Below are positions 135-63,374 of a stretch of DNA of 64,000 bases, piece by piece. The translations under genes and the position numbers were made by a program. How positions within the stretch are numbered: the first letter of the stretch is position 1; every line of letters begins with the position of its first letter. Source of the DNA: Bolinopsis microptera (lineage: Eukaryota; Ctenophora; Tentaculata; Lobata; Bolinopsidae); NCBI RefSeq assembly GCF_026151205.1, contig NC_087084.1, positions 844,312 to 908,311 of the forward strand, given 5' to 3'. The notes under the pieces are model-generated. The model worked only from the letters and a program-made list of their open reading frames with translations. It made no database searches and was not told the DNA's origin.

Positions 135-257
135 GTGGGGGAGACTAGATCTCCTAAAGAGTTGTTAGCAATGTCACTAGCTGAGTTAGAAGAAGCTGCC
201 TACGATAATTACCTGCTCAATCTTGAAAACTTCTACGTTAAAATGTTCAACAATAAG
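135..257 (+). CDS. VPS13: VPS13 exon 1 of window
   Basis: Acceptor TTACTTCAG and donor AATAAG/GTACAT frame 41 codons (phase 0 to 0). They contain LAELEEAAYDNYLLNLENF, a strongly VPS13-like segment of the groove rod. Upstream bases 1-134 look intronic. Confidence 0.75.
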
Positions 258-3200
258 GTACATTAAATAAAACTAAATTTAATATTATTAGTAACTGTTG
301 TTATACTGATCGCTTGTTTAAACTCAATCTAATAAAATCTTTAACCCTGAATCTTTAACCCCGGTCTAAGAACATGTCTGTCTGCACATTCCCATAGTTA
401 CTAGTGGTTACTAGTGGTTACCAGTGGTTACTAGTGCGTGGTTACTAGTGGTTACTAGTGGTTACAAGTTGTTACTAGTGGTTACTAGTGGTTACTAGTG
501 GTTACTAGTGGTTAACATTCCCATGAACAAGAGTAATTATAGGAAGATTGGGAGAACGATCTAGCAATAACACACGACTCCTTTATACTCTACCCTGTAC
601 GACTCAATATAAATCTGTCTAACTCTATCCTGCCTGACGATAAGAAGCTACCTAAAACCAAGTGCCGGGGACATCTGGACTCTGTTAAAGTTGTAATGTC
701 AGATGTGAAGATTCAGCATTTGTATAGGTTAGGGTTATTTAGTTTAGAGTCATTGTGTGTAGAATTGCTTTATTTCACATTTTCTCAATTAGAGAATAGT
801 TAAAGCGATTGAGAAAGTATTATTACAATATTGATAAAAGTAGCAGAAAACTCTTACTCGATAATAGACTGGTGCAGTCCGTAGATTGCGTGATGGTTGT
901 GAAGATGCCAACTTCTAAACCTCTCAATAGGTTCAATAGGTAGGTAGTATAATTACTAACAGTACACAGTACACAGTACACAGTACACAGTACACAGTAC
1001 ACAGTACACAGTACACAGTACACAGTACACAGTACACAGTACACAGTACACAGTACACAGTACACAGTACACAGTACACAGTATAACAATTGCACTGCCC
1101 AGGATAATAAACAGTTTACCAAAGTCGGAGCCAGCTGAAGTTAAGAGTAAAAACTCAGTGGTAGGACTAGATGATAACTGGGTAGACGCAGCTCAACTAG
1201 CTGCTGTTACTAATATAGTTACAGGTCAGAATGTTATTATAATGCAAGTTATATCAACAATTCCTGTAATGCTAGCACTAAACATCGTGATACCATTTAA
1301 ATTCCTTTATTTCTGGCAGCATTCTAAAGAAGTGAAGTCATTGTGAAGATGATAAACAATATAGCTAGATTATGTAGGTGTGCAAAAGGGTGTTTTCTAA
1401 AGAAACACTTAGCTTGTCCTCCTGTAGATCTGTAGATCTCTAGAAGAGGTATAGCAATTAATAACAAAGCAGAATGTGTTCAATGCGGGCTCAGCTGAGT
1501 TTACTTCCAGCTACCACTAGTTTACGAGACATTTATAAAATGAAAGTAGCGCGCGGCGCAATGTCAGCACCTCATCACGCGAGTAAAAACCGCGCGGCGC
1601 CATGTGTGAAATGAATATTTTCATGAGGCTAGCTTCCGCAACAAGCGCAATTTATTACAGCTTCTGTGAAAATATTCGTATGAAAGGTTTTTCTTAAGGA
1701 ATGTGTCGTCCATATTCCCATGAAACATCGGAAAAAGTTGTCCGATTGAAACTGATCAGGGAGTTAATTCCCAGCTTCTCCTATTATTACCCTGACTGTG
1801 TGGAAATCATGGTTAGCACCTTCACAAAACTTTCACTGAATTTCAGAGTCGCGCAGGAACTACAGACTAAAGAAGTTGAAACCTTGTGTTTCCTTTTCTG
1901 ACAATACCCAATCTTCTGACCGACCGACTACTGACTCCTCGACTCACAAATCTGGGTCTGAGAAGAAACTTGTGAAAGGGATCCTAAAAAGTAACACAAT
2001 TCAAAATCTAATACACCCGCTCCTTGAGCAAAGCTATTATGACAATTAGAAAATAAATTAGTGTTAACTCCCGTCTCCCTCCTTGAACAATCAATTTAGA
2101 AATGTTCACAGTTCCAACATTAAAACACCTAGTACTGACTATTTAATCCCAGGGAAAGTGTCCACACCCTCCGAAAATGCCAAATCCCCATTATCTGCTG
2201 TTTCCATCTCAACTGAGGCTTCCGACGATTTCTTTGACGCTCCAGACCACTTTTTAGTGGAGGAGGATGGACTGATAACAGAGGTATTTGTTTTGTGACT
2301 GATAACAGTTTTAAAAGAGCAAAAATTAGAAACTAATAGCGATTTTTACTGGTTCATTTATTTTGTATCTGTTGTGACGGAAAATAAATAAAGTATTCCT
2401 GGATTTACATTGAAAATGTATTTTTCAGAGGGAATCTCTGAATATAATCAGTCAGACAGTGCTTCTAGCAGACTTTACACTAAACGTTATTGTATTAGAC
2501 GTCGTAAAACAAAGTGAGTTATCTGCTGTTATAACGTTAGGGGGGGGGGGGGGGGGGGGGCACCATTAAATGTCACCCCGACCCTGAAAATGCCCGAATG
2601 TCGATGAAATTTTGCTACGAATTTCGAAGCTTTTTGATTAAGAGATTTAATGTGATAAACATTGTTATTTATTTCAGGTCGTTACGAAGGGAAAGTAGTG
2701 TTGAAGTAAACATTGTTAAGGTGTTATTTATTTCAGGTCGTTACGAAGGGAAGGTAGTGTTGAAGTAAACATTGTTAAGGTGTTATTTATTTCAGGTCGT
2801 TACGAAGGGAAAGTAGTGTTGAAGTAAACATTGTTAAGGTGTTATTTATTTCAGGTCGTTACGAAGGGAAGGTAGTGTTGAAGTAAACATTGTTATTTAT
2901 TTCAGGTCGTTACGAAGGGAAGGTAGTGTTGAAGTAAACATTGTTATTTATTTCAGGTCGTTACGAAGGGAAGGTAGTGTTGAAGTAAACATTGTTATTT
3001 ATTTCAGGTCGTTACGAAGGGAAGGTAGTGTTGAAGTAAACATTGTTATTTATTTCAGGTCGTTACGAAGGGAAGGTAGTGTTGAAGTAAACATTGTTAA
3101 GGTGTTATTTATTTCAGGTCGTTACGAAAGGAAGGTAGTGTTGAAGTAAACATTGTTATTTATTTCAGGTCGTTACGAAGGGAAGGTAGTGTTGAAGTAA

Positions 3201-6200
3201 ACATTGTTATTTATTTCAGGTCGTTACGAAGGGAAGGTAGTGTTGAAGTAAACATTGTTATTTATTTCAGGTCGTTACGAAGGGAAGGTAGTGTTGAAGT
3301 AAACATTGTTATTTATTTCAGGTCGTTACGAAGGGAAGGTAGTGTTGAAGTAAACATTGTTATTTATTTCAGGTCGTTACGAAGGGAAGGTAGTGTTGAA
3401 GTAAACATTGTTATTTATTTCAGGTCGTTACGAAGGGAAGGTAGTGTTGAAGTAAACATTGTTATTTATTTCAGGTCGTTACGAAGGGAAGGTAGTGTTG
3501 AAGTAAACATTGTTATTTATTTCAGGTCGTTACGAAGGGAAGGTAGTGTTGAAGTAAACATTGTTATTTATTTCAGGTCGTTACGAAGGGAAGGTAGTGT
3601 TGAAGTAAACATTGTTATTTATTTCAGGTCGTTACGAAGGGAAGGTAGTGTTGAAGTAAACATTGTTATTTATTTCAGGTCGTTACGAAGGGAAGGTAGT
3701 GTTGAAGTAAACATTGTTATTTATTTCAGGTCGTTACGAAGGGAAGGTAGTGTTGAAGTAAACATTGTTGTTTATTTCAGGTCGTTACGAAGGGAAAGTA
3801 GTGTTGAAGTAAACATTGTTAAGGTGTTATTTATTTCAGGTCGTTACGAAGGGAAGGTAGTGTTGAAGTAAACATTGTTATTTATTTCAGGTCGTTACGA
3901 AGGGAAAGTAGTGTTGAAGTAAACATTGTTATTTATTTCAGGTCGTTACGAAGGGAAAGTAGTGTTGAAGTAAACATTGTTATTTATTTCAGGTCGTTAC
4001 GAAGGGAAAGTAGTGTTGAAGTAAACATTGTTAAGGTGTTATTTATTTCAGGTCGTTACGAAGGGAAGGTAGTGTTGAAGTAAACATTGTTAAGGTGTTA
4101 TTTATTTCAGGTCGTTACGAAGGGAAGGTAGTGTTGAAGTAAACATTGTTATTTATTTCAGGTCGTTACGAAGGGAAGGTAGTGTTGAAGTAAACATTGT
4201 TATTTATTTCAGGTCGTTACGAAGGGAAGGTAGTGTTGAAGTAAACATTGTTATTTATTTCAGGTCGTTACGAAGGGAAGGTAGTGTTGAAGTAAACATT
4301 GTTGTTTATTTCAGGTCGTTACGAAGGGAAAGTAGTGTTGAAGTAAACATTGTTAAGGTGTTGTTTTATTTCAGGTCGTTACGAAGGGAAAGTAGTATTG
4401 AAGTAAACATTGTTATTTATTTCAGGTCGTTACGAAGGGAAGGTAGTGTTGAAGTAAACATTGTTCAGGTGTTATTTATTTCAGGTCGTTACGAAGGGAA
4501 GGTAGTGTTGAAGTAAACATTGTTATTTATTTCAGGTCGTTACGAAGGGAAGGTAGTGTTGAAGTAAACATTGTTAAGGTGTTATTTATTTCAGGTCGTT
4601 ACGAAGGGAAGGTAGTGTTGAAGTAAACATTGTTAAGGTGTTATTTATTTCAGGTCGTTACGAAGGGAAGGTAGTGTTGAAGTAAACATTGTTAAGGTGT
4701 TATTTATTTCAGGTCGTTACGAAGGGAAGGTAGTGTTGAAGTCCCTAATAAAGAATATCACAGCAACCTTTGTTAAAACAACCTGGATGCAGAAAATAGA
4801 GGCCTCTCTGGGGGAGATTACCATGCTGGATTGTTTTACTTCTGAGGAACCCTTACATCTCATATCATCCCCTCCTGACGGTTAGTTACTAGTGGTTACT
4901 AGTGGTTACTAGTGGTTACTAGTGGTTACTAGTGGTTACTAGTGGTTACTAGTGGTTACATCTCATATCATCCCCTCCTGCCGGTTAGTTACTAGTGGTT
5001 ACTAGTGGTTACTAGTGGTTACTAGTGGTTACTAGTGGTTACTAGTGGTTACTAGTGGTTACTAGTGGTTAAATCTCATATCATCCCCCCTGACGGTTAG
5101 TTACTAGTGGTTACTAGTGGTTACTAGTGGTTACTAGTGGTTACTAGTGGTTACTAGTGGTTACTAGTGGTTACTAGTGGTTACTAGTGGTTACATCTCA
5201 TATCATCCCCCCTGACGGTTAGTTACTAGTGGTTACTAGTGGTTACTAGTGGTTACCATTGGTTAATTTTGGTTACTAGTGAACTTTTGTTACAGCGGTA
5301 ACTATGACGTCACTATGCGTTGTGATGACGTAATGTTCAGGTAAACTGATCTCAATAGCAGCCCAGATGAATGACCCCACTTCACCTTACTTTGAGAACG
5401 ACTTTAAGAACACGGAGATTGCAGTTCTGGGCACATTCGACCAGATATCGGCTAAAATACACGTCGACTCTTTTTGTAACATCTACGAGTTTGGTGAGTG
5501 GTTACTAGTGGTTACTGGTGGTTACTAGTGGTTACTAGTGGTAACTAGTGGTTACAAGTGGTTACTAGTGGTTACTGGTGGTTACTAGTGGTTACTGGTT
5601 ACTAGTGGTTACTTAACTTTATATATAAACACCTCCGGACTACTGCTCTCTATACGTTTAACAAATTATAGTAGTAGTAAATCTTTCAAAGTACGAAATA
5701 TCTCTTTAAAAGAGCATCCTAGGCACCTTATAGATATCAAAACGCATAAAAAAGAAAACAAAAACATCAACCATCTTCTAACTTCTTCCACTCCTCCCTA
5801 TCTAAAGCTAAAAATCTAAGGTCTTCGAAATCAGTCAAATTCTTAAGTCTAATATCAAGATTTATCAAATTATAGTGAGATAAAAAAATAACAACCGAAT
5901 CAACTAATTGTTTCTAAACTATGATAAACCGTTAATACCTTAATAAAACCCAAATTCAAAATATTAAATAAATAATTTGTAGCAATGTCCGTGCTGCCCC
6001 AGTCAAGTGAGGAAGTATCTGGACTAGAGGAGAAGGAGGAGGAGAAGAGTGGGGCTGGTGGGGAAATGAAGAGGTACTCTTCTGATGAGAGCATTAATGA
6101 GGATCTTATCAAGGTAACTAATGGTTACTAGTGGTTACTAGTGGTTACTAATGGTTCCTACTTCCTAGTGGTTACTAGTGGTTACTAGTGGTTACTAATG

Positions 6201-21200: not shown

Positions 21201-24200
21201 TAAATAATAATTTATAACCTGAGTTTATTTATCAGCTTTGAAACGGAAAGTTGATATTCGTCCAACAACCACTTACTTGTTCCTGTTGTTGAGCCTGTGG
21301 GTGGCTCAGTTGTAACTTCCACATCTCTGATTGTCAGTCCGTCAATCTTTATACTTTTGATGATGTTTTCAAATTCTAGGGATTTTATTGATTTACACTC
21401 AATAAAAACTTTGTGTAATGTATATATGTATAATGTGTAATGTGTAATGTATAATGTATAATGTATTATATATACTATAGTATACATTATGTCAAGAGCA
21501 GGGATATGTTTTCATATTCTAAAATGTAATAATGGACTACTTTAGTGCATAAAATATAATACAAGTTAGGACGGAGCTTACCAATTTCGTCGGCACAAAG
21601 AAATTGGGCATTGTAGCCTTTATGATAGTTCGTGTTAAAACTTTTTGCGTTTGGAACAGCACCTTCTTCCAACGTCATAATGTAACAAAGCTCATCCTCA
21701 TCGCACGCTAGGATAAAACAAAATGAGTTTTCTCTTTCATCGGCTGATCTTAATATTTTGATAGTTAATATTATATTTCATTGTTGATTGTTTATGATTG
21801 TTTATCAATATAGTATACAGTAGTAGTTTTAATACTTTCAACACTACTATATAACAAATAATTTGAGATGATTCATCGATCCTGTTGATGGCGGTAAGCC
21901 GAAACTAGTCGAGACTCTGCGGATCAACCCGAGATACGTTGTATCACTGCTTAGTGCTTATGCTCAATGCTATCTAAAAAATCTTAAGATCCTAACGTAT
22001 TTTATCTTGGGAGGATTGCGGCTAATTAACACCCTTGCTGGACAATCTCTACTTTCCTTAACGTCAGCGAAAGCTTTATCAATACAGTAGTAGTAGTAGG
22101 TACTAATATTACCTTCAGTTCTTGTCTTGTCTGCATCATCCTGTGTACAATCATCGGGCAGGTTCACTCTGGGGTTGTAGCAGATTGGACAATTCTCTTT
22201 GCTATACTCATCTGCTACGGCGTATCCAGCTGAAATTACATTCGTTGGTTTAACTGCAGTAAATGATGTTGAACTTGATAAGTTGATATCCATAACAAAT
22301 AATTACATTCTTACAGTGGGTCAATATTTGAGCAGCACTATTTGAGTATTTGTCCTCTGCGGCGCACTAGGAGGCGCACTATTTGTCCTATGCGGCGCAC
22401 TAGGAGGCGCACTATTTGTCCTTTGCCATTAGGGAAAATACTCAAATAGTGATTTGCTCAAATGGAACTCAAATAGTACTAGGAGGCGCACTACCTAATA
22501 CTATGGTAACTAACTGTAACCATGGTAACTAGGAGGTGTACTACCTAATACTATGGTAACTAACTTTAACCATGGTAACTAGGAGGCGCACTACCTAATA
22601 CTATGGTAACTAACTGTAACCATGGTAACTAGGAGGTGTACTACCTAATACTGTGGTAACTAACTTTAACCATGGTAACTAGGAGGCGCACTACCTAATA
22701 CTATGGTAACTAACTGTAACCATGGTAACTAGGAGGTGTACTACCTAATACTATGGTAACTAACTTTAACCATGGTAACTAGGAGGTGTACTACCTAATA
22801 CTATGGTAACTAACTGTAACCATGGTAACTAGGAGGTGTACTACCTAATACTATGGTAACTAACTGTAACCATGGTAACTAGGAGGTGTACTACCTAATA
22901 CTATGGTAACTAACTGTAACCATGGTAACTAGGAGGTGTACTACCTAATACTATGGTAACTAACTTTAACCATGGTAACTAGGAGGTGTACTACCTAATA
23001 CTATGGTAACTAACTTTAACCATGGTAACTAGGAGGTGTACTACCTAATACTACTGTATTAGGACTACAATTACTGTTCGACATAGTTTGATCTGAAATT
23101 TTTATAAAATGATACAGAATTATACAGCAATTAACTTATAAACAATGACTACAAAGAATGTTTAGGCTGAAACGTGCTCAGGCTGGTTAGGGCAGAAACT
23201 AATAAACAGGATTGTTTATTACTTAATTAGTTTCAATTAATAGTTAATTAATTGTAACATGATGGATAAAAGTGTACGTACCATTTGATATCTTTATCAA
23301 AGCCAAACAAGAAAGAGCTAACAGAGTCATGACTTTCATCTTCTTGAGACTTATTTTTTAGTAAAAATTAAACACTAGTTATAAGCTTTCTAAAACTTTT
23401 CATTCTGCGCTAACTTTAACTTATAATTAAAATTAATAACTCACAAAAAAGGCTACTCTTTAGAATAACCCTCTATTTTCTCAGTTTTAACTCATTGCTT
23501 ATCTGGTTTACATTGGTTAGGAGATTTGTTTTGGACCATTGGGAGTCTCATATTTACGTTGACTGCTCTTTCACAGTTTATTATTAAGCTTTCAAGCAGT
23601 ATTATATATATACTTATTAAGTAAGTTAAGTAATTTCAACGATTTAGTGTACAAAGCTCATGATAGACGCTTATGGAGAAGCTATGGGTGAGTCGAGACT
23701 ACTCGGCCACTCGATTTTATGATTTATTTTCTATTATCCTGTGTTTGCTGTATATAGTTGATTAATAATTATATACTATTTTGTTTTCTATATTTTTTCA
23801 GACTTTTAGTCTAGTTATACATTAATTTATCATATTTTATTAAACTAAGGTGTAGTATTGCCACATCCCGGTTCAATTTGCAACGGAGTTTTATATTAAC
23901 AGGAAGCGATGTAACAGAGTCGATATATTTTAATGTTGCCATGGAGTGGCAAGTCCCCATACATCGTGGTCCGGTAGATTCATTGCGTCTTAATATATGA
24001 ACTTGATGGGCAACATTCTTTTGATGTTGAAGATATGCGAAGAAATCTTGGTGTGATCCCATAATAGGCGATGGTTTTCGTCCATGATGGAATCCTAGTT
24101 TTGAAACGTTAAGACTGCCCCAAATTGTAAACCAGGCATATCAGACACAATGGAAAGTCTTCTTCACAATGAGAACTGAAATGCATGTTTTGGGAGAATT

Positions 24201-27200
24201 TTCGGGCCACACCCTTTTTTGCCTTTAACGGCGATATTTTGCCCTATTTTCATATTATTTTTAATTTTTGGCTACCCTACTCTCAGTTAAACACACATTT
24301 CAATTTTATGCCATTTATTACAGAATAAGCCCTCACGCTAGCAAGCGAAGACTCATGGTTAGACTTGATCGGTTCAGCGCCGTGCGCCAATGAAAATTTA
24401 ATTCAGAATATCTCGCAAAATAACTTTGCGCAGTTATATTAGGGACGTGGGCGACATTTGGGTATGCAGGCACGTTCGCTCGCAGGCAGGCACGCACGAC
24501 GGTCGCAAGCTACCATATACGGAGAAAAAAAACCTCCTTTGCTAACCCTTGTCCTTGACTCTTTTGTGATTTCGGCACATGAGTCATGCTGTCATGGATC
24601 GGGAAAAAATTGCATAATTTATGCAAATTTGGCCTATCGTCCATTTTTGGGTTTTAGGCCTGCTGGGAAAATGACCATTTGCATGCACCTCTTGGGACTT
24701 TTAGCATGAACTGAGGTGTTCAGGAGTTAGATGAGACAAAAAGGAACAGTTTGCAATTAAAATTCATAACAAAAGGTTTTTTTTCCTCTTCATAATTTGG
24801 GGACTATTTTGAATAATTTTTGACTTTTTTAAAATGAGGACTCAAAATAGTTTGCTTAAGTTTTCAGAAGTCACAAACAAATCTCCCAACCCTTGAGGTA
24901 AACATACTAAGAGATACATACTACTACCATTAAAGGAAAATTTAGGAAATTGAGGAAATGAGGAGGGTTACTAACTGGGGCGTTTTTTTTGGGACACCCT
25001 GTATTCTACCGAGTGCAAATAAAAGTTCAGGAGTGACTACTTGGATCAAGAAGAATAGCGACAGTGAGGCTTAATAGGCAAATGCCTTCTTAATAGCGAG
25101 ACCATGATGTCCACAATCTGAGCTAATAATAGCGAGTCTGGCCGATCAATACAGGATTACAAAAGGTTACACCACAACAATGCAGGATTACAAAAGGTTA
25201 AACCACAAGAATAGAGAGGTTGCGCTGCTGTAACCCAGTATTGCTACCAACCAGGCTCCTCACAATACACTGGGAGAAGGTTATTCTCTCTCTCACAATT
25301 GGAATATTAGAATCCTTTGTTTTTTAATTAAATCCGGCCTGATCTGACCTTTTACATCATGACAATATGATTTGCTTGGATTAAACTGTATGTTAGTGGT
25401 GTGTAGAAAGAATAAACTAAATGAGCTATAGATATCAATATGAATATCTATACTACCCCAGTGTGTTGGGTTTGTGCACTGTACTGTACTACTGCACCAA
25501 TAGAGTGGCTAACAGGAAATTATATGACACATAAAATGGTAAAAGTTTCACCACACATTGACACACCCAGCTATAAAACTACCGAAAATAGCAAAACGGA
25601 GTCTACTAGTTACCATAGCAACCACAGCAACACTCACAGTAATACTTAAACATATCTGTGAGGGTAAGAGTAGGTTACCAGTCAAGTGGTGTTACCACAG
25701 CAACACTACCATATAAAGTAATGATACCATAGCAACACTACCAGATAAGGTAATGTTAGTGATTAAATTTCAAGTAACCGTAAAATTGAGTAAAATAATG
25801 ATCACGTGCAAAAGTAAAGCGAGTCTCACACTCCACCAGTAGTACAGTATAGATATATAGTATATTATAGTATAGATACAATATAGTATATTATAGTATA
25901 GATATATAATATATTATAGTATAGATATATTATAGTATACTATAGTATAGATATATTATAGTATACTATAGTATAGATATATTATAGTATACTATAGTAT
26001 AGATATATTATAGTATACTATAGTATAGATATATTATAGTATACTATAGTATAGATATATTATAGTATACTATAGTATAGATATATTATAGTATACTATA
26101 GTATAGATAAAGCCTTGCAAGTAAAATCCTCGCAGCTACAGCTGTATGTTGTAGTAAGCAAGATAATACACTATGTAGCTATGTGTACGGCTCATAAACT
26201 TAATAAATATTTGGTCTTTCCTCCGTACTACCATAGCGTTGGTAACTACTGGTATCCGCCTATATTGCCTAATATGGTAGTGTTACTATGGTAACATTAC
26301 CTTATATGGTAGTGTTACCATCCTACCATAGCGTAGGTAACTGCTGATATTCTCATATGAATTATAAGTTACTAAATTAGTCGGGTGGGAAACTTTCAAA
26401 CTGTGTAAGGTAGGTAACATACCGCGCGGTATTTAATAAAATATTTAAGTATTTACTGTTATTTGCAGGTTGTTTTAGAGTTTTAAGGTTTCTACTTAAC
26501 CTGCTGTACGGTTAGTCTCTACAGCAACTTAACCCCCTGCACCTCTCAGGTAGCACCTGCCCCTAAGAAACCCTCTGCAGATCTAGAGACCAGTGTGGAG
26601 AGTGAGGATGGTACTATAACTGGGGAGGGAGGAGTGGGGGATATCAGAGTAGAGGTACAGGTAGAACTAGCAGTGTGCCTCCTCTACACTGATGAGAAGA
26701 TACTGGTAGGTGGATTATATACTATGTGCAGTTGCAGTGGTCATTAAGATGCTTCTAGTGGTTGCTAGGTTACTGAGTGTTTGCTAGGTTACTGAGTGGT
26801 TGCTAGGTTGGTGAGTGGTTACTAGGTTACTGAGTGGTTGCTAGGTTACTGAGTGGTTGCTAGGTTACTGAGTGGTTGCTAGGTTGGTGAGTGGTTGCTA
26901 GGTTACTGAGTGGTTGCTAGGTTACTGAGTGGTTGCTAGGTTACTGAGTGGTTGCTAGGTTGGTGAGTGGTTGCTAGGTTACTGAGTGGTTGCTAGGTTA
27001 CTGAGTGGTTGCTAGGTTACTGAGTGGTTGCTAGGTTACTGAGTGGTTGCTAGGTTACTGAGTGGTTGCTAGGTTGGTGAGTGGTTGCTAGGTTGGTGAG
27101 TGGTTACTAGGTTACTGAGTGGTTGCTAGGTTACTGAGTGGTTGCTAGGTTACTGAGTGGTTGCTAGGTTGGTGAGTGGTTGCTAGGTTACTGAGTGGTT

Positions 27201-29524
27201 GCTAGGTTACTGAGTGGTTGCTAGGTTACTGAGTGGTTGCTAGGTTACTGAGTGATCGTTAGGTTACTAAGTGGTGGCTAGGTTACTGAGTGATCGTTAG
27301 GTTACTAAGTGGTGGCTAGGTTACTGAGTGGTTGCTGGGTTACTGAGTGGTTGATATGTTACTGAGTGGTTGCTAGGTGATTAACTCATGTTTCCTCTAT
27401 CCAGGATATCTCAGACCCACTATCGGGAAATAGAGAAGAAGATAAGATAATAATGTACTCTGAAGCAAGGAATGTAACCCTGGATTTGAGGATGTTTGGT
27501 GAGGGGGGCAAGAGAGTGGAGGTGAGGATATGGGACGTGAGAGTGGAGGACACTGACACTCAGGTCATGGAGTCCGGGATTCAGAGGTGGGTTTCACTTT
27601 CACTTTCGCTTTCACTTTCAATTATATGGGGCGTGAGAGTGGAGGACACTTTCACTTTCACTTTCACTTTTACTTATATCACGTTCCTAGTACAAACTCC
27701 TCGATGTACAATTTTGAACTCGAGGCTTCCTCCTTGTAATACGATCTCGGAAGGCAGGCCTCCCCTTTGCAATACGAGCTCGGGAGCGGGAGCTCTGCCT
27801 TCAGAGGTACTTATCGAGAATGACTCTGACCAAAGATTTGTAACGTCAAAATTTAAAAAAGTTTTTCTGGAAACTAATTTTGTTCACGTTTCATGCTACT
27901 CTGATATCAGCCGGTCGGTTCCTAGTCCGTACCTACATTCGGAAATCGGAAGGCTGTGATTGGTTCCATATACTACTTATAAAGAACGTACTAATATTTG
28001 GCCCTCAGATTTAGGATAAAGGAAAGTGCGATTTTTCGCGGAGAGCTGAAAATCGCGATTTGTCGCGGAGAATGGGGAAAATCGCGATTCCGCACATGCC
28101 GCGATTACCTTTGTCCTTGCTTATATGGGACGTGAGAGTGGAGGACACTGAGTCCGGGTTTCACTTTCACCTCCACTTTCGCTTTCACTTTCGCTTTCAC
28201 TTTCACTTTGTCCGGGTTCCCCTCTCTCCTCCTCCCCCTGCTTAGTAAAATTCTTCACATTCTTTACATTACTACCCACTAACCAGGATACTAGCACACA
28301 AGCAGCTAGCTAACGAAGAAGCTCACCTTATCACTAGTTTGAGCGGGACTAGCTCTGCTATACCGGCCAGACGTGCCATAAGTCTGGATCTACCCCAACC
28401 TATGGTATGTTGTAGTCACATGTTGTAGTCACATTTTGTAGTCACATGTTGTAGTCACATGTTGTAGTCACATGTTGTGGTCACATGTTGTAGTCTCATG
28501 TTGTAGTCACATGTTGTGGTCACATGTTGTAGTCACATGTTGTAGTCACATGTTGTAGTCACATGTTGTAGACACATGTTGTAGTCACATGTTGTAGTCA
28601 CATGTTGTAGTCACATGTTGTAGTCATATGTTGTAGTCACATGTTGTAGTCACATGTTGTAGTCACATGTTGTAGTCACATGTTGTAGTCACATGTTGTA
28701 GTCACATGTTGTAGTCACATGTTGTAGTCACGTGTTGTAGTCACATGTTGTAGTCACATGTTGTAGTCACATGTTGTAGTCACATGTTGTAGTCATATGT
28801 TGTAGTCACATGTTGTAGTCACATGTTGTAGTCACATGTTGTAGTCACATGTTGTAGTCACATGTTGTAGTCACATGTTGTAGTCACGTGTTGTAGTCAC
28901 ATGTTGGAGTCACAGGTTGTAGTCACATGTTGTAGTCACATGTTGTGGTCACATGTTGTAGTCACATGTTGTAGTCACATGTTGTGGTCACATGTTGTAG
29001 TCACATGTTGTAGTCACATGTTGGAGTCACATGTTGTAGTCACATGTTGTAGTCACATGTTGTAGTCACATGTTGTAGTCACATGTTGTAGTCACATGTT
29101 GTAGTCACATGTTGTAGTCACATGTTGTAGTCACATGTTGTGGTCACATGTTGTAGTCTCATGTTGTTTTCACATGTTGTAGTCACATTTTGTAGTCACA
29201 TGTTATAGTCACATGTTGTAGTCACATGTTGTAGTCACATGTTGTAGTCACATGTTGTAGTCACATGTTGCAGTCACATGTTGTAGTCACATGTTGTAGT
29301 AACATGTTGTAGTCACATGTTGTAGTCACATGTTGTAGTCACATGTTGTAGTCACATGTTGTAGTCTCATGGTTCGTGGTATGTTGTAGTCAGATAGATT
29401 CCTGTCTAAATAGAAAGACAGTTTCATGATACCTCCAATATTTACAGATGATAGCGACAGTGGATCTCAGTGAAGAGGGTGACATTATTGTGGACTCTAA
29501 AATAGAACGTACACCACCTGTGTG
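135..29524 (+). CDS. VPS13: VPS13-family bridge-like lipid transfer protein, spliced, partial (18 exons in window)
   Basis: VPS13 proteins are very large rods with a hydrophobic groove that move phospholipids between organelles at contact sites. The 18 exons join in phase into about 834 codons from the middle of the protein. Recognisable pieces, in order: the AAYDNYLLNLENFYV beta segment, an acidic DDFFDAP linker, the segment around LLADFTLNVIVLDVVKQ, a Glu/Lys-rich low-complexity linker (exon 8), the LNIKMGSLHFIFLNYFVQ strand leading into NLLHVLDVF (exons 11-12), and EDYHMALKILEENLAE (exon 14). These match the family by eye. The amino-terminal chorein domain and the C-terminal VAB, ATG2-like and PH regions are absent: the start lies before the window, and the end is not found after 29.5 kb. 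Intron 14 holds another gene on the opposite strand. Which paralogue (A/C, B or D) this is cannot be told. Confidence 0.85.
397..514 (+). repeat. GTTACTAGTG decamer array (VPS13 intron 1)
   Basis: About a dozen copies of a 10-bp unit with minor variants. The same decamer, in the same orientation to transcription, recurs in VPS13 introns 6, 7 and 8. Confidence 0.95.
543..727 (+). CDS. VPS13: VPS13 exon 2
   Basis: Acceptor AATTATAG, donor TATAG/GTTAGG; 185 nt, phase 0 to 2. It encodes EDWENDLAITHDSFILYPV and then RLNINLSNSILPDDKKLPK, matching the VPS13 pattern of a basic strand followed by PDxxKLPK and a beta segment. Confidence 0.75.
960..1083. repeat. CACAGTA heptamer array (VPS13 intron 2)
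   Basis: About 18 almost perfect 7-bp repeats lying just before the exon 3 acceptor. Confidence 0.95.
1103..1224 (+). CDS. VPS13: VPS13 exon 3 (3' end uncertain)
   Basis: The acceptor CACTGCCCAG completes the split AGG codon left by exon 2. The frame reads RIINSLPKSEPAEVK and continues through GLDDNWVDAAQLAAVTNIV. The donor ACAG/GTCAGA (phase 1) pairs with the phase-1 acceptor at 2,153. An earlier donor after 1,160 (GTG/GTAGGA) is possible but leaves phase 0, for which I see no partner. Confidence 0.55.
1225..2152 (+). other. VPS13 intron 3, no gene recognised
   Basis: Contains short CG-rich patches (GCGCGCGGCGC near 1,549 and a similar one near 1,590) and a 66-codon open frame at 1,701-1,901 with no recognisable similarity. 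It may hide a decayed mobile element or a short VPS13 exon. Confidence 0.4.
2153..2283 (+). CDS. VPS13: VPS13 exon 4 (acidic DDFFDAP linker)
   Basis: A TACTGAC branch-point-like motif precedes the acceptor TTTAATCCCAG. The exon encodes a Ser/Pro-rich stretch and then STEASDDFFDAPDHFLVEED, the acidic linker typical of this part of VPS13. The donor is GAG/GTATTT, phase 0. Acceptors at 2,099 or 2,111 are alternatives but are in phase 2. Confidence 0.6.
2429..2513 (+). CDS. VPS13: VPS13 exon 5
   Basis: Acceptor ATTTTTCAG, donor CAAA/GTGAGT (strong consensus); 85 nt, phase 0 to 1. It encodes TVLLADFTLNVIVLDVVKQ, a beta segment as found in VPS13 after the acidic linker. The following intron carries a 21-G run and then the decoy-acceptor array. 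Confidence 0.75.
2540..2560. repeat. Poly-G run
   Basis: 21 consecutive G in VPS13 intron 5, 26 nt after the donor. The length of such a run is unreliable in any assembly. Confidence 0.9.
2661..4712 (+). repeat. Minisatellite of decoy 3' splice sites (VPS13 intron 5)
   Basis: Units of 51 nt (or 59 with an AAGGTGTT insert) run up to the true exon 6 acceptor. Each has TTATTTATTTCAG, the first 30 nt of exon 6, then TAAACATTGTT. I count 38 decoys plus the real site. Read in the phase set by exon 5, each decoy gives ten exon-6-like codons and then TAA. Confidence 0.95.
4713..4880 (+). CDS. VPS13: VPS13 exon 6
   Basis: The real acceptor is the last of 39 near-identical ones. The phase-1 start joins exon 5 to give SRYEGKVVLKSLIKN, and the exon ends with TSEEPLHLISSPPDG. 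168 nt, donor GACG/GTTAGT, phase 1. Its first 30 nt are repeated upstream in the intron, and its last 24 or so nt are repeated downstream. Confidence 0.8.
4882..5280 (+). repeat. Exon-6-end/donor duplications within GTTACTAGTG array (VPS13 intron 6)
   Basis: Blocks of the GTTACTAGTG decamer are separated by three extra copies (near 4,959, 5,072 and 5,193) of the last 23-24 nt of exon 6 together with its GGTTAGTTAC donor. Small changes (GACG to GCCG, loss of a CT) mark the copies. Confidence 0.92.
5341..5493 (+). CDS. VPS13: VPS13 exon 7
   Basis: Acceptor TAATGTTCAG, donor TTTG/GTGAGT; 51 codons, phase 1 to 1. The segment from FENDFKNTEIAVLGTFDQ to KIHVDSFCNIYEF resembles the VPS13 motif where an Asn-Asn-Thr-Glu loop precedes a strand ending in a hydrophobic stretch. 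Confidence 0.8.
5494..5612 (+). repeat. GTTACTAGTG array starting at the donor (VPS13 intron 7)
   Basis: The donor GTGAGTGGTTACTAGTGG runs directly into the decamer array, so the first unit overlaps the 5' splice site. Confidence 0.9.
5613..5982 (+). other. Remainder of VPS13 intron 7
   Basis: AT-rich unique sequence; nothing recognised. Confidence 0.5.
5983..6113 (+). CDS. VPS13: VPS13 exon 8 (charged linker)
   Basis: Acceptor AATTTGTAG, donor AAG/GTAACT; 131 nt, phase 1 to 0. It encodes AMSVLPQSSEEVSGLEEKEE and a Lys/Glu/Ser-rich linker ending SINEDLIK. An in-frame alternative acceptor after CTGCCCCAG would shorten it by 20 nt but break the phase. Confidence 0.75.
6114..6260 (+). repeat. 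GTTACTAGTG/GTTACTAATG array starting at the donor (VPS13 intron 8)
   Basis: The donor GTAACTAATGG is itself a variant unit of the array. Confidence 0.9.
6401..6496 (+). CDS. VPS13: VPS13 exon 9
   Basis: Acceptor GTCGTTACAG, donor GAG/GTTAGT; 32 codons, phase 0. It encodes IHVAAVVNNINIIVDSSQR, a beta strand of the lipid-groove rod. The next intron holds the CRE/E-box minisatellite. Confidence 0.75.
6627..7690. repeat. 21-bp CRE/E-box minisatellite (VPS13 intron 9)
   Basis: About 50 copies of a 21-bp unit containing TGACGTCACGTGG, an overlap of the CRE palindrome TGACGTCA and the E-box CACGTG, followed by TATTACAA. A few copies have CATGTG or GCCGTC variants. The period is a multiple of three, so long frames stay open by chance. 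Confidence 0.95.
7700..7840 (+). CDS. VPS13: VPS13 exon 10
   Basis: Acceptor ATAACTACAG lies directly after the CRE/E-box array; donor ATG/GTGTGT. 47 codons, phase 0, ending in SSIYQELISFQM. There is no stop in frame and it joins cleanly to exon 11. Confidence 0.75.
7985..8083 (+). CDS. VPS13: VPS13 exon 11
   Basis: Acceptor CTCTATCAG, donor CAG/GTACTG; 33 codons, phase 0. It encodes DMELNIKMGSLHFIFLNYF, the most VPS13-like strand in the window. Confidence 0.85.
8105..8245. repeat. Degenerate TGACGTCA-bearing repeats (VPS13 intron 11)
   Basis: AATGACGTCATTTA, GTGACGTCACTG and AATGACGTAACTTA variants, related to the intron 9 array but without the E-box part. Confidence 0.8.
8258..8541 (+). 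CDS. VPS13: VPS13 exon 12
   Basis: The longest exon seen, 284 nt: acceptor CCTCCTCAG, donor CCAG/GTACGA, phase 0 to 2. It begins NLLHVLDVFSVARDKMVSAS. It contains VVLNLEVESPVVKIPRNSTS, the classic VPS13 pattern of a strand ending in a Pro-x-Asn-Ser turn, followed by a KVKLGNIKLQNKF strand. Confidence 0.88.
8657..8780. repeat. CRE/E-box repeats (VPS13 intron 12)
   Basis: About six copies of the intron 9 type unit (TGACGTCACGTGGTATTA), the last ones decayed. Confidence 0.85.
8800..8945 (+). CDS. VPS13: VPS13 exon 13
   Basis: The acceptor TTTCAACAG completes the split AGG codon. Donor CTTG/GTAAGA, phase 1. It encodes RVILGSYGDVLRERDILEPY and ends KQIHANLG. The last 50 or so nt plus the donor are the unit of the 34-copy array that fills the next intron. 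Confidence 0.8.
8897..10799 (+). repeat. Minisatellite of exon-13 end plus 5' splice site (VPS13 intron 13)
   Basis: About 34 copies of a 56-bp unit. The first copy is the exon itself; each later copy repeats the last 50 or so nt of exon 13 (ending CGCTAATCTTG) and its donor GTAAGATGC. Copies differ by only a few substitutions (for example GTTTATACC for GTTAATACC), so the expansion is young or homogenised. Confidence 0.95.
11008..11114 (+). CDS. VPS13: VPS13 exon 14
   Basis: Acceptor AACATTACAG, donor GATGAG/GTAATA; 107 nt, phase 1 to 0. It encodes YEDYHMALKILEENLAETGD. The family motif (E/D)DYxxLMKIL..NLAE is obvious. The donor motif GAGGTAATAAC is repeated about 17 times downstream. Intron 14 is 15.4 kb and contains the nested antisense gene. 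Confidence 0.85.
11111..11575 (+). repeat. Donor-seeded 27-bp array (VPS13 intron 14)
   Basis: About 17 copies of a unit beginning GAGGTAATAACGT and ending TTAATAAGTT. The first GAG/GTAATAAC is the real exon 14 donor. Confidence 0.93.
11720..11850. repeat. Two copies of a ~62-66-bp repeat
   Basis: Unit with CACTATTAATAAGTTGG, TTTAATATTAA, ACATGTAGTCTGAATTAATA. The same unit is present about four times at 43,655-43,920, marking the start of the duplication. Confidence 0.9.
12357..12450. repeat. GTGTTAACAACAGTGTTAGTA repeats
   Basis: A handful of imperfect repeats built on AGTGTTAACAACAGTGTTA, in the 3' flank of the nested gene. Confidence 0.8.
12568..12880. repeat. E-box (CACGTG) minisatellite
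   Basis: About 15 copies of a 20-21-bp unit TGACATCACGTGTGTTGTCA with GACGATCACG variants. It lies just 3' of the nested gene's stop codon, so it is probably in its 3' UTR or flank. Confidence 0.92.
12893..12993 (-). CDS. Cys-rich GPI protein exon 8 (GPI signal and stop)
   Basis: The strong acceptor CCCTCTCCCTCAG gives DIPEKTPEPTVPSSSA, then VVESCFLLLSFTLLIRL and a TAA at 12,893-12,895. Ser 304-306 are plausible omega sites. An inner acceptor at CACCTGAACCAACAG would keep the frame and shorten the linker. Confidence 0.75.
12893..23339 (-). CDS. Secreted GPI-anchored Cys-rich protein with ephrin-receptor-like modules (8 exons, complete)
   Basis: Predicted 324 residues; every intron interrupts in phase 1. 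Residues 1-19 are a signal peptide (MKVMTLLALSCLALIKISN). Residues 33-96 hold Cys 33, 36, 47, 60, 66 and 96, in a spacing (NCPICYN, ACDEDELCY) that could be a diverged Ly6/uPAR-type fold; this is uncertain. Residues 101-150 are a Thr/Pro/Glu-rich linker. Residues 150-291 form three Cys-rich modules of the ephrin-receptor/GCC2-GCC3 type (CEKCPENTYS, CVECPGETPV, CEDCADNYYS, CSICPADTYS). The C-terminus has a PSSSA stretch followed by a 13-residue hydrophobic end and no cytoplasmic tail, the layout of a GPI-anchor signal. A cell-surface receptor or binding protein is inferred; ligand unknown. The gene lies wholly within VPS13 intron 14 on the other strand. Confidence 0.78.
13099..13203 (-). CDS. 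Cys-rich GPI protein exon 7 (third module)
   Basis: Acceptor TTCCTGCTAG, donor TGTG/GTAAGT; 105 nt, phase 1 to 1. It encodes AHTCSICPADTYSDQAHNEK and CTACPGAGSSSSKC. The G-rich minisatellite of intron 6 begins within about 15 nt of the acceptor. A corrupted copy of this exon can be traced near 46.56-46.66 kb. Confidence 0.8.
13215..16802. repeat. G-rich minisatellite, left block (intron 6 of nested gene)
   Basis: About 85 copies of a 40-50-bp unit: TTACCAGGTTCACAGCCTGG, AGGGAGGGATTATTA and a variable run of G. On the gene's sense strand it reads C-run, CTAATAAT, CCTCCCTCCAG, 12 nt, GTAACC, i.e. branch-point, pyrimidine tract, acceptor and donor look-alikes in every unit. Confidence 0.96.
16803..18855. 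mobile_element. DNA transposon, 2,053 bp, 17-bp TIRs, ATTA target duplication
   Basis: The ends are perfect 17-bp inverted repeats (GGGCATATTTCAAAACT). ATTA flanks both sides (16,799-16,802 and 18,856-18,859); removing the element and one ATTA restores a normal minisatellite unit. Inside, the 13-mer GTCACTCCGTAAC occurs seven times exactly (17,142; 17,308; 17,326 inverted; 17,355; 18,440; 18,454; 18,651), with variants at 18,077 and 18,819. The superfamily is not assigned. Confidence 0.9.
17372..17995 (+). pseudogene. Decayed transposon-encoded protein, C-terminal part
   Basis: The frame from VINTPKEFATYADSLLKSI to RPVPGTLKVHHIVR resembles ORFs of animal transposons that carry a PGT-(R/K)-x-x-H motif. 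The end, reading LYPGKVIGKPDSSNLTVKC and SIWKWPDKEDVHDYE, resembles the Tyr-Pro-Gly-x-Val plus WKWP module at the C-terminus of such proteins. A 19-bp tandem duplication near 17,735-17,770 (GAGGGTGAACTTTACCCA and its near copy) and a frame shift near 17,600 break it; a TGA sits at 17,717. No catalytic core was seen, so a non-autonomous or dead copy is likely. Confidence 0.55.
18856..19622. repeat. G-rich minisatellite, right block
   Basis: About 18 further copies of the 13.2-kb array unit, after the transposon. Several have GGGGCCGTGGGGGGG inserts and copies truncated to GGTTCACAGTCTGG. Confidence 0.95.
19623..19817 (-). other. Unique flank of the array, 3' side of exon 6 (duplicated at 63.88 kb)
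   Basis: Contains ACCATGGTGA and TACCATGGTGAT short repeats. Bases 19,631-19,750 recur almost identically at the right edge of the window. Confidence 0.8.
19818..19979 (-). CDS. Cys-rich GPI protein exon 6 (second module)
   Basis: Acceptor CATACCCCAG, donor CTAA/GTACGA; 162 nt, phase 1 to 1. It encodes GCAAGKFLDNKGKCEDCADN and ends SLPGNDCTTL, with the same CxxC-YYS and CxxCPAGS spacing as exon 5. Confidence 0.82.
   Translation of the reverse strand, partial: VVQLGSSLITRASVKIVLTTTTVLTLYTTLSARSALLDPLNNLAACLATTVQH
19985..20110. repeat. AT-rich TAGTTATAGATAGTTTAT repeats (intron 5 of nested gene)
   Basis: Short imperfect repeats, TATA-rich; no coding content. Confidence 0.7.
20216..20422 (-). 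CDS. Cys-rich GPI protein exon 5 (first ephrin-receptor-like module)
   Basis: Acceptor TCTCATTGCAG, donor GCTG/GTTAGC; 207 nt, phase 1 to 1. Cysteines sit in the pattern CxxCP-N-TYS, CxxCPGxTP and GATSxxxC, the signature of ephrin-receptor-like (GCC2/GCC3) repeats. Confidence 0.85.
20596..21118. repeat. G-run minisatellite with CTGTATTGCTGCTGTTTTTA unit (intron 4 of nested gene)
   Basis: About 13 copies of a 38-50-bp unit: CCCCCTGTATTGCTGCTG, TTTTTACAGAG and 7-25 G. The G runs make it a strong G-quadruplex candidate on the + strand (the non-template strand for VPS13). Confidence 0.93.
21277..21375 (-). CDS. Cys-rich GPI protein exon 4 (Thr/Pro linker)
   Basis: The donor ACAA/GTAAGT is perfect. 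The acceptor AAATCCCTAG is the only one giving phase 1, though its pyrimidine tract is poor. 99 nt, ending VTTEPPTGSTTGT. Confidence 0.6.
21582..21707 (-). CDS. Cys-rich GPI protein exon 3
   Basis: Acceptor TTTATCCTAG, donor ATTG/GTAAGC; 126 nt, phase 1 to 1. It encodes ACDEDELCYIMTLEEGAVPN and ends QFLCADEI. The other two entry frames hit stops at once, which fixes the phase. Confidence 0.75.
21820..21960 (+). mobile_element. Small retroelement-like fragment with hammerhead-like motif
   Basis: Bases 21,824-21,866 recur at 31,843-31,885. Next come CTGTTGA, a GGC-GGTAA-GCC hairpin and GAAACTAGTC at 21,882-21,910, the layout of the hammerhead core (CUGANGA, stem II, GAAA, short stem III, UC), but with U instead of A at core position 6. 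It lies in intron 2 of the nested gene, antisense. Confidence 0.35.
22113..22229 (-). CDS. Cys-rich GPI protein exon 2
   Basis: Acceptor GTAATTTCAG, donor GAAG/GTAATA; 117 nt, phase 1 to 1. It encodes DEYSKENCPICYNPRVNLPD and ends DKTRTE. The open frame continues past the donor, but only this donor gives the phase needed by exon 3. Confidence 0.75.
22360..23055. repeat. AGGAGG-TACTACCTAATACTA repeat array (intron 1 of nested gene)
   Basis: About ten copies of a 59-60-bp unit with CTACCTAATACTATGGTAAC, TAACCATGGTAACTAGGAGG and alternating GTGTA/GCGCA. The array is preceded by short GGCGCACTAGGAGGCGCAC copies. Confidence 0.93.
23282..23339 (-). CDS. Cys-rich GPI protein exon 1 (signal peptide)
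   Basis: The ATG is at 23,337-23,339. It encodes 19 residues with one early Lys and a Leu/Ala core, then donor AATG/GTACGT in phase 1. No TATA box or other promoter motif was recognised upstream (23,340 onward). Confidence 0.75.
23340..25849. other. Upstream flank of the nested gene / VPS13 intron 14, no gene recognised
   Basis: Unique, AT-rich DNA. A minus-strand open frame at 23,811-24,062 (YLQHQKNVAHQVHILRRNES) and a plus frame at 24,458-24,709 have no family I recognise. GGGACACCCTGTA near 24,992 resembles an end of a Tc1/mariner-like element, but I found no partner. CAGGATTACAAAAGGTTA is repeated near 25,150-25,200. Confidence 0.4.
25850..26106. repeat. TATAGTATAGATATATTATAG satellite-like array
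   Basis: About ten copies of a 27-28-bp AT-rich unit that includes the palindrome TATAGTATACTATA. It can form hairpins or cruciforms. Confidence 0.92.
26107..26549. other. End of VPS13 intron 14
   Basis: Short repeats ACCATAGCGT(A/T)GGTAACT and ATATGGTAGTGTTAC, then the exon 15 acceptor. No gene seen. Confidence 0.5.
26550..26705 (+). CDS. VPS13: VPS13 exon 15
   Basis: The strong acceptor GCACCTCTCAG continues phase 0 from exon 14. Donor ATACTG/GTAGGT; 52 codons. A Glu/Gly-rich linker precedes DIRVEVQVELAVCLLYTDEK, matching the VPS13 strand that follows the EDYxxLMKIL segment. This supports the same gene resuming after the nested locus. Confidence 0.8.
26750..27380 (+). repeat. GAGTGGTTGCTAGGTTACT 19-bp array (VPS13 intron 15)
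   Basis: About 33 copies. Some carry TTGGTGAGTGG, a full 5' splice-site consensus, and GCTAGG, an acceptor-like step. Confidence 0.93.
27405..27586 (+). CDS. VPS13: VPS13 exon 16
   Basis: Acceptor CCTCTATCCAG, donor CAGAG/GTGGGT; 182 nt, phase 0 to 2. It encodes YSEARNVTLDLRMFGEGGKR and EVRIWDVRVED, as in VPS13 strands that describe a variant of a D-x-x-L-D turn. Pieces of its 3' end recur twice in the following intron. Confidence 0.75.
27595..28215 (+). repeat. CTTTCA repeats with exon-16-derived duplications (VPS13 intron 16)
   Basis: Hexamer runs at 27,595-27,617, 27,648-27,672 and 28,160-28,210 start 8-9 nt after the donor. Two copies of exon 16 sequence containing CGTGAGAGTGGAGGACACT (27,630 and 28,130) each lead into a CTTTCA run. 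The second also retains GAGTCCGGG, skipping the bases between. Confidence 0.85.
28287..28404 (+). CDS. VPS13: VPS13 exon 17
   Basis: The acceptor CACTAACCAG completes an AGG codon with exon 16. Donor CCTATG/GTATGT; 118 nt, ending in phase 0. It encodes RILAHKQLANEEAHLIT, a Ser/Ala-rich stretch and DLPQPM. The donor sequence itself starts the 13-bp minisatellite. Confidence 0.75.
28405..29375 (+). repeat. TGTTGTAGTCACA 13-bp array seeded at the donor (VPS13 intron 17)
   Basis: About 74 copies. The donor GTATGTTGTAGTCACATG is the first unit, and GGTATGTTGTAGTC recurs at the far end of the array (29,378). Confidence 0.95.
29448..29524 (+). CDS. VPS13: VPS13 exon 18 (3' boundary uncertain; last exon seen)
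   Basis: After acceptor ATATTTACAG the frame reads MIATVDLSEEGDIIVDSKIE, matching the VPS13 strand that starts Met-Ile after this point. The frame runs on to a TGA at 29,565-29,567. A donor GTGTG/GTTAGC at 29,525 is my preferred end, but it is weak. No further VPS13 exon was found to 64 kb, so the gene is either very long-introned, broken or mis-assembled here. Confidence 0.5.
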
Positions 29525-42603: not shown

Positions 42604-42805
42604 ATTATTAGACGGAGGCCATTTCCCCGTAGATCCATACTCCGAATGATCCTCACCCCGTCCTACTGTATTAGACGGAATGAAGCTCTCCGGAATTTCA
42701 CGGAGATAAAATCCTACAGTATCAACAAAATTACCGTAGGAATGGTCTCCGTTCGTGGAACGCAAACTCCGAAAATATACATAGACGATCTCTCCGTCTA
42801 ATAAT
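42604..42805. mobile_element. MITE-like element, 202 bp
   Basis: 14-bp terminal inverted repeats, ATTATTAGACGGAG at 42,604 and its exact complement ending at 42,805. An internal ATTAGACGGA copy lies near 42,670. No coding capacity; the target duplication is unclear. Confidence 0.65.
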
Positions 42806-63370: not shown

Positions 63371-63374
63371 GCCC

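What the first reader, a model, noticed from the sequence alone, without database searches (positions are those of the whole stretch)
135..29524. Splice-site-seeded minisatellites as a locus-wide pattern
At least seven VPS13 introns (5, 6, 7, 8, 13, 14, 17), and in a looser form 16, have arrays that begin within a few bases of a splice site or contain it. Introns 5, 6, 13 and 16 also carry duplicated exon ends. This suggests a mechanism that repeatedly slips or re-copies at exon-intron borders, for example R-loop or lariat-primed synthesis, or selection that allows expansion only where each unit stays splice-compatible. I know no named class of repeats for this.
Basis: inference. Interest (0 to 1): 0.85.

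Follow-up and report, generated by a model that had tools for sequence, protein, structure and literature searches.

The report
Splice-site-straddling minisatellites in comb jelly
In a comb-jelly gene many introns are filled with short tandem repeats that include or touch a splice site; this matches a repeat type already described in lancelets, and its closeness to splice sites is mostly what one expects when repeats grow inside very short introns.

Summary
In a VPS13 gene (one 647-aa open frame over 14 exons), 7 of 15 introns carry an array spanning a splice site or within 4 nt of one. The assembly fits the ctenophore Bolinopsis microptera.

A named class exists: amphioxus "mirages", minisatellites spanning exon-intron boundaries. 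And seeding at splice sites is not needed: with arrays collapsed to one unit, 13 of 15 introns are 73-382 bp, and blind placement that may overlap exons predicts 11.6 boundary arrays of 66; 12 are seen (P=0.51). Outside VPS13: 5 of 46 against 7.3. Evidence the other way: VPS13 donors 6 against 2.1 (P=0.009; P=0.10 with one shared unit counted once), and 12 against 3.1 if units may fall only inside introns.

Mirages recur in dynein genes (65 bp x12, 55 bp x2) and a nested gene. Several arrays differ strongly in copy number between two copies of this locus. Best reading: mirage-type minisatellites, tolerated because the outer splice site still works (inferred; no RNA).

The parts
2429..29524 (+). 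VPS13 exons E5 2429-2513, E6 4713-4880, E7 5341-5493, E8 5983-6113, E9 6401-6496, E10 7700-7840, E11 7985-8083, E12 8258-8541, E13 8800-8945, E14 11008-11114, E15 26550-26705, E16 27405-27586, E17 28287-28404, E18 29448-29524; also E1 135-257 and E2 543-727; E5a ends at 2283 (start unresolved)
   Evidence: E5-E18: one open frame, GT-AG junctions; PF25033 E=2.2e-23; E1-E2 PF12624 E=1.2e-11, below its cut-off
2656..4742 (+). Intron 5 array, 51-bp unit x39, spans the E6 acceptor by 30 nt; units hold TTTATTTCAG plus the exon start
   Evidence: TRF, edge, 39 copies counted; an upstream copy gives a stop after 10 residues
4885..5281 (+). Intron 6 array, GTTACTAGTG x~39, with copies of the E6 end and donor between blocks
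5497..5613 (+). Intron 7 array, same 10-bp unit, starts 3 nt after the donor
6113..6275 (+). Intron 8 array, same 10-bp unit, starts at the donor
6626..7686 (+). Intron 9 array, 21-bp unit x50.5, ends 13 nt before the acceptor (not counted as touching)
   Evidence: an exact 17-mer of its unit has 41 matches, 33 here and 8 in the noisy C1 copy
8892..10798 (+). Intron 13 array, 56-bp unit x34, spans the E13 donor by 54 nt of exon; units hold exon end + GTAAG
   Evidence: stop after 65 nt if the first donor is skipped
11111..11571 (+). Intron 14 array, 27-bp unit x17, starts 4 nt inside E14; units hold GAG|GTAATA
27587..28286 (+). Intron 16 with partial copies of the 3' part of E16; in the second copy of the locus (L025 6064-6240) the exon end + donor is repeated
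28407..29371 (+). Intron 17 array, 13-bp unit x74 (133 in the second copy), starts 2 nt after the donor
13214..19576 (-). Acceptor-spanning 41-bp array (86 + 17 copies, interrupted at 16806-18855) of a gene nested in VPS13 intron 14 on the other strand; reaches 17 nt into its exon 13230-13099
13099..23339 (-). Nested gene, 7 exons resolved (23339-23282, 22229-22113, 21707-21582, 21375-21277, 20422-20216, 19979-19818, 13230-13099); a further 3' exon by eye
   Evidence: one open frame with GT-AG junctions; Ephrin_rec_like PF07699 E=4.4e-16

Best explanation
These are mirage-type minisatellites: tandem duplications in the short introns of a minisatellite-rich locus, some of which happened to include or abut a splice site and then grew by slippage or unequal exchange. 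Shown here: the arrays, their edges, the short collapsed introns, absence from the dynein exons examined, strong copy-number differences of several arrays between two copies of the locus, and the same architecture in other genes of the genome. Inferred: that the outermost splice site (first donor, last acceptor) is the one used, so each extra copy is spliced out and nearly neutral; that slippage or unequal exchange is the growth step; and that no process aimed at splice sites is needed. An array at a boundary is then mainly a matter of short introns, plus purging of arrays from exons.
For: Boundary arrays are as frequent as blind placement predicts: 12 of 66 against 11.63 (P=0.51); outside VPS13 5 of 46 against 7.34. 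Introns are short: dynein median 198 bp; 13 of 15 VPS13 introns are 73-382 bp after collapse. No array of score 60 or more lies wholly in 64,050 bp of dynein exon, about 31 expected. At the six donors with touching arrays, the frame meets a stop within 2-65 nt if the donor is skipped, and an upstream intron-5 acceptor gives a stop after 10 residues, while first-donor/last-acceptor use gives one open frame. Window copy against second copy: 13-bp 74.2/132.9, 19-bp 32.7/9.5, 33-bp 2.4/13.7, 66-bp 2.1/4.0 copies, while E16 and E17 are 99.5% and 97.5% identical. Same architecture in dynein genes chosen without regard to repeats: L006 65 bp x12.1 and L012 55 bp x2.0, each exon end + donor.
Against: In VPS13 alone the donor side is in excess: 6 against 2.14 (P=0.009); units up to 30 bp 5 against 0.95 (P=0.0008); with the arrays sharing GTTACTAGTG counted once 4 against 1.93 (P=0.10). 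Pooled donors are 9 against 4.87 (P=0.039) before and 9 against 5.81 (P=0.11) after the nested gene was treated apart. Within 30 nt VPS13 shows 12 against 8.09 (P=0.011), and within 12 nt the pool shows 17 against 12.56 (P=0.06). Against a null confined to intron interiors there is an excess (12 against 3.07, P=1.5e-5), so the conclusion rests on letting units overlap exons. Blind placement does not explain why neighbouring introns share one unit, nor why window 1-30000 is 51% repeat against a mean of 4.7% in 18 dynein stretches. Two small arrays have the same copy number in both copies of the locus. No RNA data.
Confidence: 0.7

Rival explanations
1. A process aimed at splice sites (R-loop, lariat-primed or donor-directed copying) starts arrays at exon-intron borders.
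For: Donor-side excess inside VPS13 (6 against 2.14, P=0.009; short units 5 against 0.95); three successive donors (introns 6-8) carry one 10-bp unit; a C4 locus pair repeats a putative exon end + GTTAGT with the same unit.
Against: Not reproduced in 46 arrays of other genes (donor 3 against 3.67; short units at donors 0 of 34 against 1.69). No clear strand bias of splice motifs in 35 dynein arrays that do not touch a splice site. The 10-bp family also lies antisense near acceptors (L019 CAP-Gly exon, L023 SRCR exon; acceptors by eye) and 139 nt from the donor in intron 1.
Confidence: 0.13
2. The repeats are kept because extra donors or acceptors help splicing of these introns, for example by raising local U1 binding or allowing stepwise (recursive) splicing at CAG|GT units.
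For: Intron 5 holds 40 YAGGT sites in sense and 0 antisense; introns 13 and 14 hold 34 and 17 donor-like sites; intron 15 holds 31 YAGGT in sense, 0 antisense, without touching a splice site.
Against: For introns 5, 13 and 14 this is what any boundary-spanning duplication gives. Several arrays vary widely in copy number between the two copies of the locus, which suits near-neutral turnover better. Boundary arrays are no more frequent than blind placement overall.
Confidence: 0.08
3. Assembly artefact: array lengths or boundary copies come from misassembly.
For: The assembly holds an indel-rich second version of window 4160-14686 on C1 and a noisy repeat region at window 46706-64000; gap closing with long reads is stated for B. 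microptera.
Against: The noisy C1 version carries nearly the same copy numbers (56-bp 34.1/34.1, 27-bp 17.1/17.1, 21-bp 50.5/49.2), as a single long read would. Boundary-spanning arrays also occur in dynein loci.
Confidence: 0.05
4. The introns themselves are new, made by tandem duplication of AGGT-bearing exon segments or by insertion of mobile intron-like elements.
For: Tandem genomic duplication is a documented route of intron gain (PMC3443670 passages), and mirages were proposed as such a route (PMC3087553 passages).
Against: The arrays sit in introns that also hold non-repeat sequence. Intron age in VPS13 was not tested, since no other VPS13 gene structure was compared.
Confidence: 0.05

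Closest known systems
Mirages of amphioxus (Adh3, globins BflGb6 and BflGb9, TnC, PGBD5; passages of PMC3087553 and PMC3902484; the 2002 paper that PMC3087553 cites for the name is not held)
   Same: Minisatellite-like tandem units spanning a 5' or 3' exon-intron boundary, unit lengths from 10 to about 160 bp, AG/GT signals in many units, length differing between haplotypes, frame kept if the outer splice site is used
   Different: Different phylum (ctenophore, by inference); larger copy numbers in the spanning arrays here (34-39) than the 6 and 3 units given for the BflGb6 haplotypes; several introns of one gene affected; splicing not checked by RNA here
Intron gain by tandem genomic duplication of AGGT segments (PMC3443670 passages; PMC4974935 search listing)
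   Same: Tandem duplication that includes splice signals
   Different: Here the duplications sit at existing intron edges and lengthen introns; no new intron was shown
Ordinary hypervariable minisatellites (recalled, from no call)
   Same: Head-to-tail units of 10-66 bp with large copy-number differences
   Different: Some units include coding exon ends and splice signals

Membership tests
mirage minisatellites | tandem units span an exon-intron boundary | tested here: met
   introns 5, 13, 14 and the nested gene in the window; L004, L006, L012 elsewhere
mirage minisatellites | both 5' and 3' boundaries can be affected | tested here: met
   donor: introns 13, 14, L004, L006, L012; acceptor: intron 5 and nested gene
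mirage minisatellites | many units carry AG/GT splice signals | tested here: met
   intron 5: 40 YAGGT; introns 13/14: 34/17 donor-like sites, 0 antisense
mirage minisatellites | length instability between haplotypes | tested here: inconclusive
   13-, 19-, 33- and 66-bp arrays differ strongly between the window and the second copy; a 32-bp (2.0/2.0) and a 27/29-bp array (2.5/2.5) do not; whether the second copy is a haplotype or a duplicate is not settled
mirage minisatellites | regular splicing is not disturbed | not testable with these tools
   no RNA; the open frame is only consistent with it
mirage minisatellites | somatic instability (reported for Adh3, per PMC3087553) | not testable with these tools
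   needs reads or PCR from tissues
   12 of 66 against 11.63 expected; other genes 5 of 46 against 7.34; but VPS13 donors alone 6 against 2.14
intron gain by tandem genomic duplication | intron absent in relatives, present only where the duplication is | not tested
   no relative's VPS13 gene structure was compared

The most novel reading that the evidence does not exclude
The unit GTTACTAGTG, which by eye resembles a weak splice donor, may spread from donor to donor by microhomology-guided copying. It sits at three successive VPS13 donors (introns 6-8) and, mixed with repeated putative exon ends and GTTAGT, at a pair of C4 loci. That would be a minisatellite that homes on splice donors. Its antisense and mid-intron copies speak against a strict form of this.
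Probability: 0.07. Interest if true: 0.75.

Novelty: new member of a known kind. Interest (0 to 1): 0.4.

Why it matters
In the papers seen here, mirages are reported from amphioxus. Finding them in what is very probably a ctenophore, in VPS13 and in dynein genes picked without regard to repeats, suggests that boundary-spanning minisatellites can arise in distant lineages with short introns and active minisatellites, and that splicing tolerates dozens of near-identical donors. The collapsed-intron null is a useful caution: closeness of a repeat to a splice site says little when introns are about 150 bp long. The locus is also a natural test of how the spliceosome picks one of 34 donors or 39 acceptors.

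Tried and rejected
Rejected: that the C1 copy (C1:13521552-13532314) is a paralogue. Its nine matched exons (E6-E14) are 85-93% identical with many indels, like the whole aligned stretch, while array copy numbers nearly match. Rejected: coding use of the repeats; skipping the donors gives stops. Not upheld as a rule: donor over acceptor bias. A hand tally of exon-containing arrays gave 7 donor to 1 acceptor (one-sided P=0.035) and edges within 4 nt gave 9 to 2 (P=0.033); the nested gene then added an acceptor case, leaving 7 to 2 and 9 to 3, P about 0.09 and 0.07 by my arithmetic. Tried with little gain: direct repeats flanking GTTACTAGTG blocks as an insertion signature; 13 of 24 blocks show one at shuffle P<=0.015, but 10 of these lie in the two related C4 loci.

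Rows dropped before counts: dynein introns under 70 bp (15 of 228); TRF rows under score 60, overlapping rows merged; the unresolved stretch E2-E5a, nine arrays of VPS13 intron 14 inside the nested gene. Of those nine, the two 41-bp arrays were merged into one and a 19-bp x2.2 array inside the insertion (17730-17770) was left out, giving 7 nested-gene arrays; their distances and collapsed lengths were worked out by hand and typed into. Of the dynein loci, 12 were sampled and two with long uninterrupted frames served as queries; C4:10.07 Mb, C1:0.83 Mb, C4:1.32 Mb and C4:1.22 Mb were not fetched.

Literature: mirages in ctenophores were not found (0 papers; 203 papers with 3 of 4 terms, 10 listed; 9 listed; 1 unrelated paper); the library is partial.

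Full report
What is there. The window lies on contig C13 of a 264.65-Mb assembly in 232 contigs. C1, the longest of the 11 contigs whose length I saw, has 26,206,493 bp. A published table gives Bolinopsis microptera 265 Mb with a largest chromosome of 26.2 Mb (PMC11797021 passages); 13 chromosome-scale scaffolds and about 254 Mb by k-mers are given in PMC10232365 (passages). The scaffold numbers differ (232 here, 346 in the table), so the species is a strong inference, not a proof.

Exons of the + strand gene were placed by eye and checked for frame and GT/AG signals. E5 to E18 (14 exons) give one open 647-aa frame with a VPS13_M match; E1-E2 match VPS13_N below its cut-off. Tandem arrays came from TRF. 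Of 15 introns, 13 hold at least one array (score 60 or more) and 7 have an array whose edge spans a splice site or lies within 4 nt of it: intron 5 at the acceptor, introns 6, 7, 8, 13, 14 and 17 at the donor. The finding's list is confirmed, and intron 16 holds partial exon copies.

Is it more than chance? Each array was collapsed to one unit and that unit placed at random. If units may overlap the exon, 4.37 of 29 VPS13 arrays would touch a splice site by chance and 7 do (P=0.086); if units may only fall inside introns, 1.27 are expected (P=4e-5). The difference arises because 13 of 15 introns, once collapsed, are 73-382 bp, so little interior is left.

Independent genes. To leave the locus that prompted the question, I sampled dynein heavy-chain genes, found by the AAA_6 domain without regard to repeats: 18 stretches of 10 kb in 12 loci. 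Gene structures came from a spliced-alignment script with two long uninterrupted dynein frames of the same genome as queries. Of 213 introns of 70 bp or more, 31 hold arrays, 39 arrays in all, and 4 touch a splice site against 5.38 expected. L006 repeats 53 nt of exon end plus donor about twelve times (65-bp unit), L012 twice (55-bp unit), L004 reaches 12 nt into the exon (36-bp unit x2.3), and in L009 a 10-bp array ends 2 nt before an acceptor. The gene nested in VPS13 intron 14 on the other strand (Ephrin_rec_like repeats) adds 7 arrays, one spanning an acceptor: the 41-bp array at 13214-19576. All together 12 of 66 arrays touch a splice site against 11.63 expected (P=0.51), or 3.07 under the interior-only null (P=1.5e-5).

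Results against this reading. In VPS13 alone the donor side is in excess, 6 against 2.14 (P=0.009), and for units up to 30 bp 5 against 0.95 (P=0.0008). Within 30 nt VPS13 has 12 arrays against 8.09 (P=0.011); within 12 nt the pool has 17 against 12.56 (P=0.06). Pooled donors were 9 against 4.87 (P=0.039) and 9 against 5.81 (P=0.11) once the nested gene was treated apart. Introns 6, 7 and 8 share one unit, GTTACTAGTG, so they are not independent; counting that family once leaves 4 against 1.93 (P=0.10). In the other genes short units touch donors 0 of 34 times against 1.69 expected. The array of intron 15, not at a splice site, holds 31 YAGGT in sense and 0 antisense. I treat the donor excess as local and unproven as a rule, but it is not zero evidence.

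What selection does. No array of score 60 or more lies wholly in 64,050 bp of dynein exon, about 31 expected at the intron rate, so selection removes them there. At boundaries they are neither clearly enriched nor clearly depleted. If the donor of introns 6, 7, 8, 13, 14 or 17 were skipped, the frame would meet a stop within 2-65 nt, and an upstream acceptor of intron 5 gives a stop after 10 residues (intron 16, whose donor has no touching array in the window, runs 370 nt). That fits use of the outer splice site, which I infer and could not test.

Turnover. A second copy of E15-E18 lies at C13:917.5-921 kb; similarity to intron 14 (70-96%) begins near window 43.66 kb. Several arrays differ: 13-bp 74 against 133 copies, 19-bp 33 against 9.5, 33-bp 2.4 against 13.7, 66-bp 2.1 against 4.0; the 50-bp array (11.5 copies in the window) gives no TRF row in L025. 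Two small ones do not differ: 32-bp 2.0/2.0 and 27/29-bp 2.5/2.5. E16 and E17 are 99.5% and 97.5% identical, E15 90.9%, E18 97% over 68 of 77 nt. The second copy also has an extra 59-nt copy of the E16 end with its donor. Whether it is the other haplotype or a real duplicate is open. The C1 version of window 4160-14686 is different: over one 4998-column stretch 392 gap columns and 235 mismatches, exons alike, with nearly the same array copy numbers. I read it as unpolished long-read gap fill, consistent with the gap closing named in PMC10232365.

The shared units. GTTACTAGTG x3 has 207 matches in the genome. Eight dispersed regions were read. A pair of C4 loci (L020, L021) repeats a putative exon end and GTTAGT between blocks, as VPS13 intron 6 does, but the L021 frame has no Pfam match. 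In L019 (CAP-Gly) and L023 (SRCR) the array runs antisense to the exon and lies just upstream of its acceptor, placed by eye. So the family is not restricted to donors. An exact 17-mer of the 21-bp unit of intron 9 has 41 matches, 33 in that intron and 8 in the noisy C1 copy; the likeness of arrays in introns 11, 12 and 14 was judged by eye.

Comparison with what is known. PMC3087553 (passages) describes minisatellite-like duplications of intron-exon boundaries in amphioxus globin genes, called mirages after earlier work on Adh3, at 5' and 3' boundaries, with AG/GT in many units, unit lengths 10-160 bp and haplotype length differences; PMC3902484 (passage) adds PGBD5 and TnC. The arrays here meet the three structural features tested; instability between haplotypes is likely but unsettled, and splicing and somatic instability could not be tested. 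The 2002 paper is not held. Searches for the same in ctenophores showed nothing relevant in the rows listed from this partial library. I file it as a new member of a known kind, in a distant phylum and at a larger scale.

Noticed in passing
window 46706-64000: A 17-kb stretch of the nested gene's 41-bp unit in very noisy form (TRF about 63% match), like unpolished long-read sequence; it suggests a far longer array in the second copy of the locus.
   Followed up: partly
L001/L002 (C1:13521552-13532314): Indel-rich second version of window 4160-14686 on another contig, probably a gap-filling artefact of the assembly.
   Followed up: yes
window 43655 to C13:920953: Second copy of VPS13 intron 14 to E18 in the same contig, haplotig or real duplication.
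   Followed up: partly
L006 4439-5206 and L012 5770-5879 (coding-strand coordinates of each locus): Two different dynein genes carry a mirage at what by eye is the same conserved exon end (LPxNLKxLFRxVAM), chance or a shared hot spot.
   Followed up: no
C13:733-817 kb: Several further VPS13_N matches on both strands, a possible local family of VPS13 genes.
   Followed up: no
window 16806-18855: A 2-kb insertion with repeated TCACTCCGTAAC motifs splits the 41-bp array; by eye it looks like a mobile element.
   Followed up: no
window 387-524: The intron 1 GTTACTAGTG array is flanked by a 10-bp direct repeat ACATTCCCAT (shuffle P=0.015), like a target-site duplication.
   Followed up: partly
window 30000-43600: This neighbouring stretch is only 0.2% tandem repeat, against 51% in window 1-30000: the repeat-rich part has a sharp edge.
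   Followed up: no
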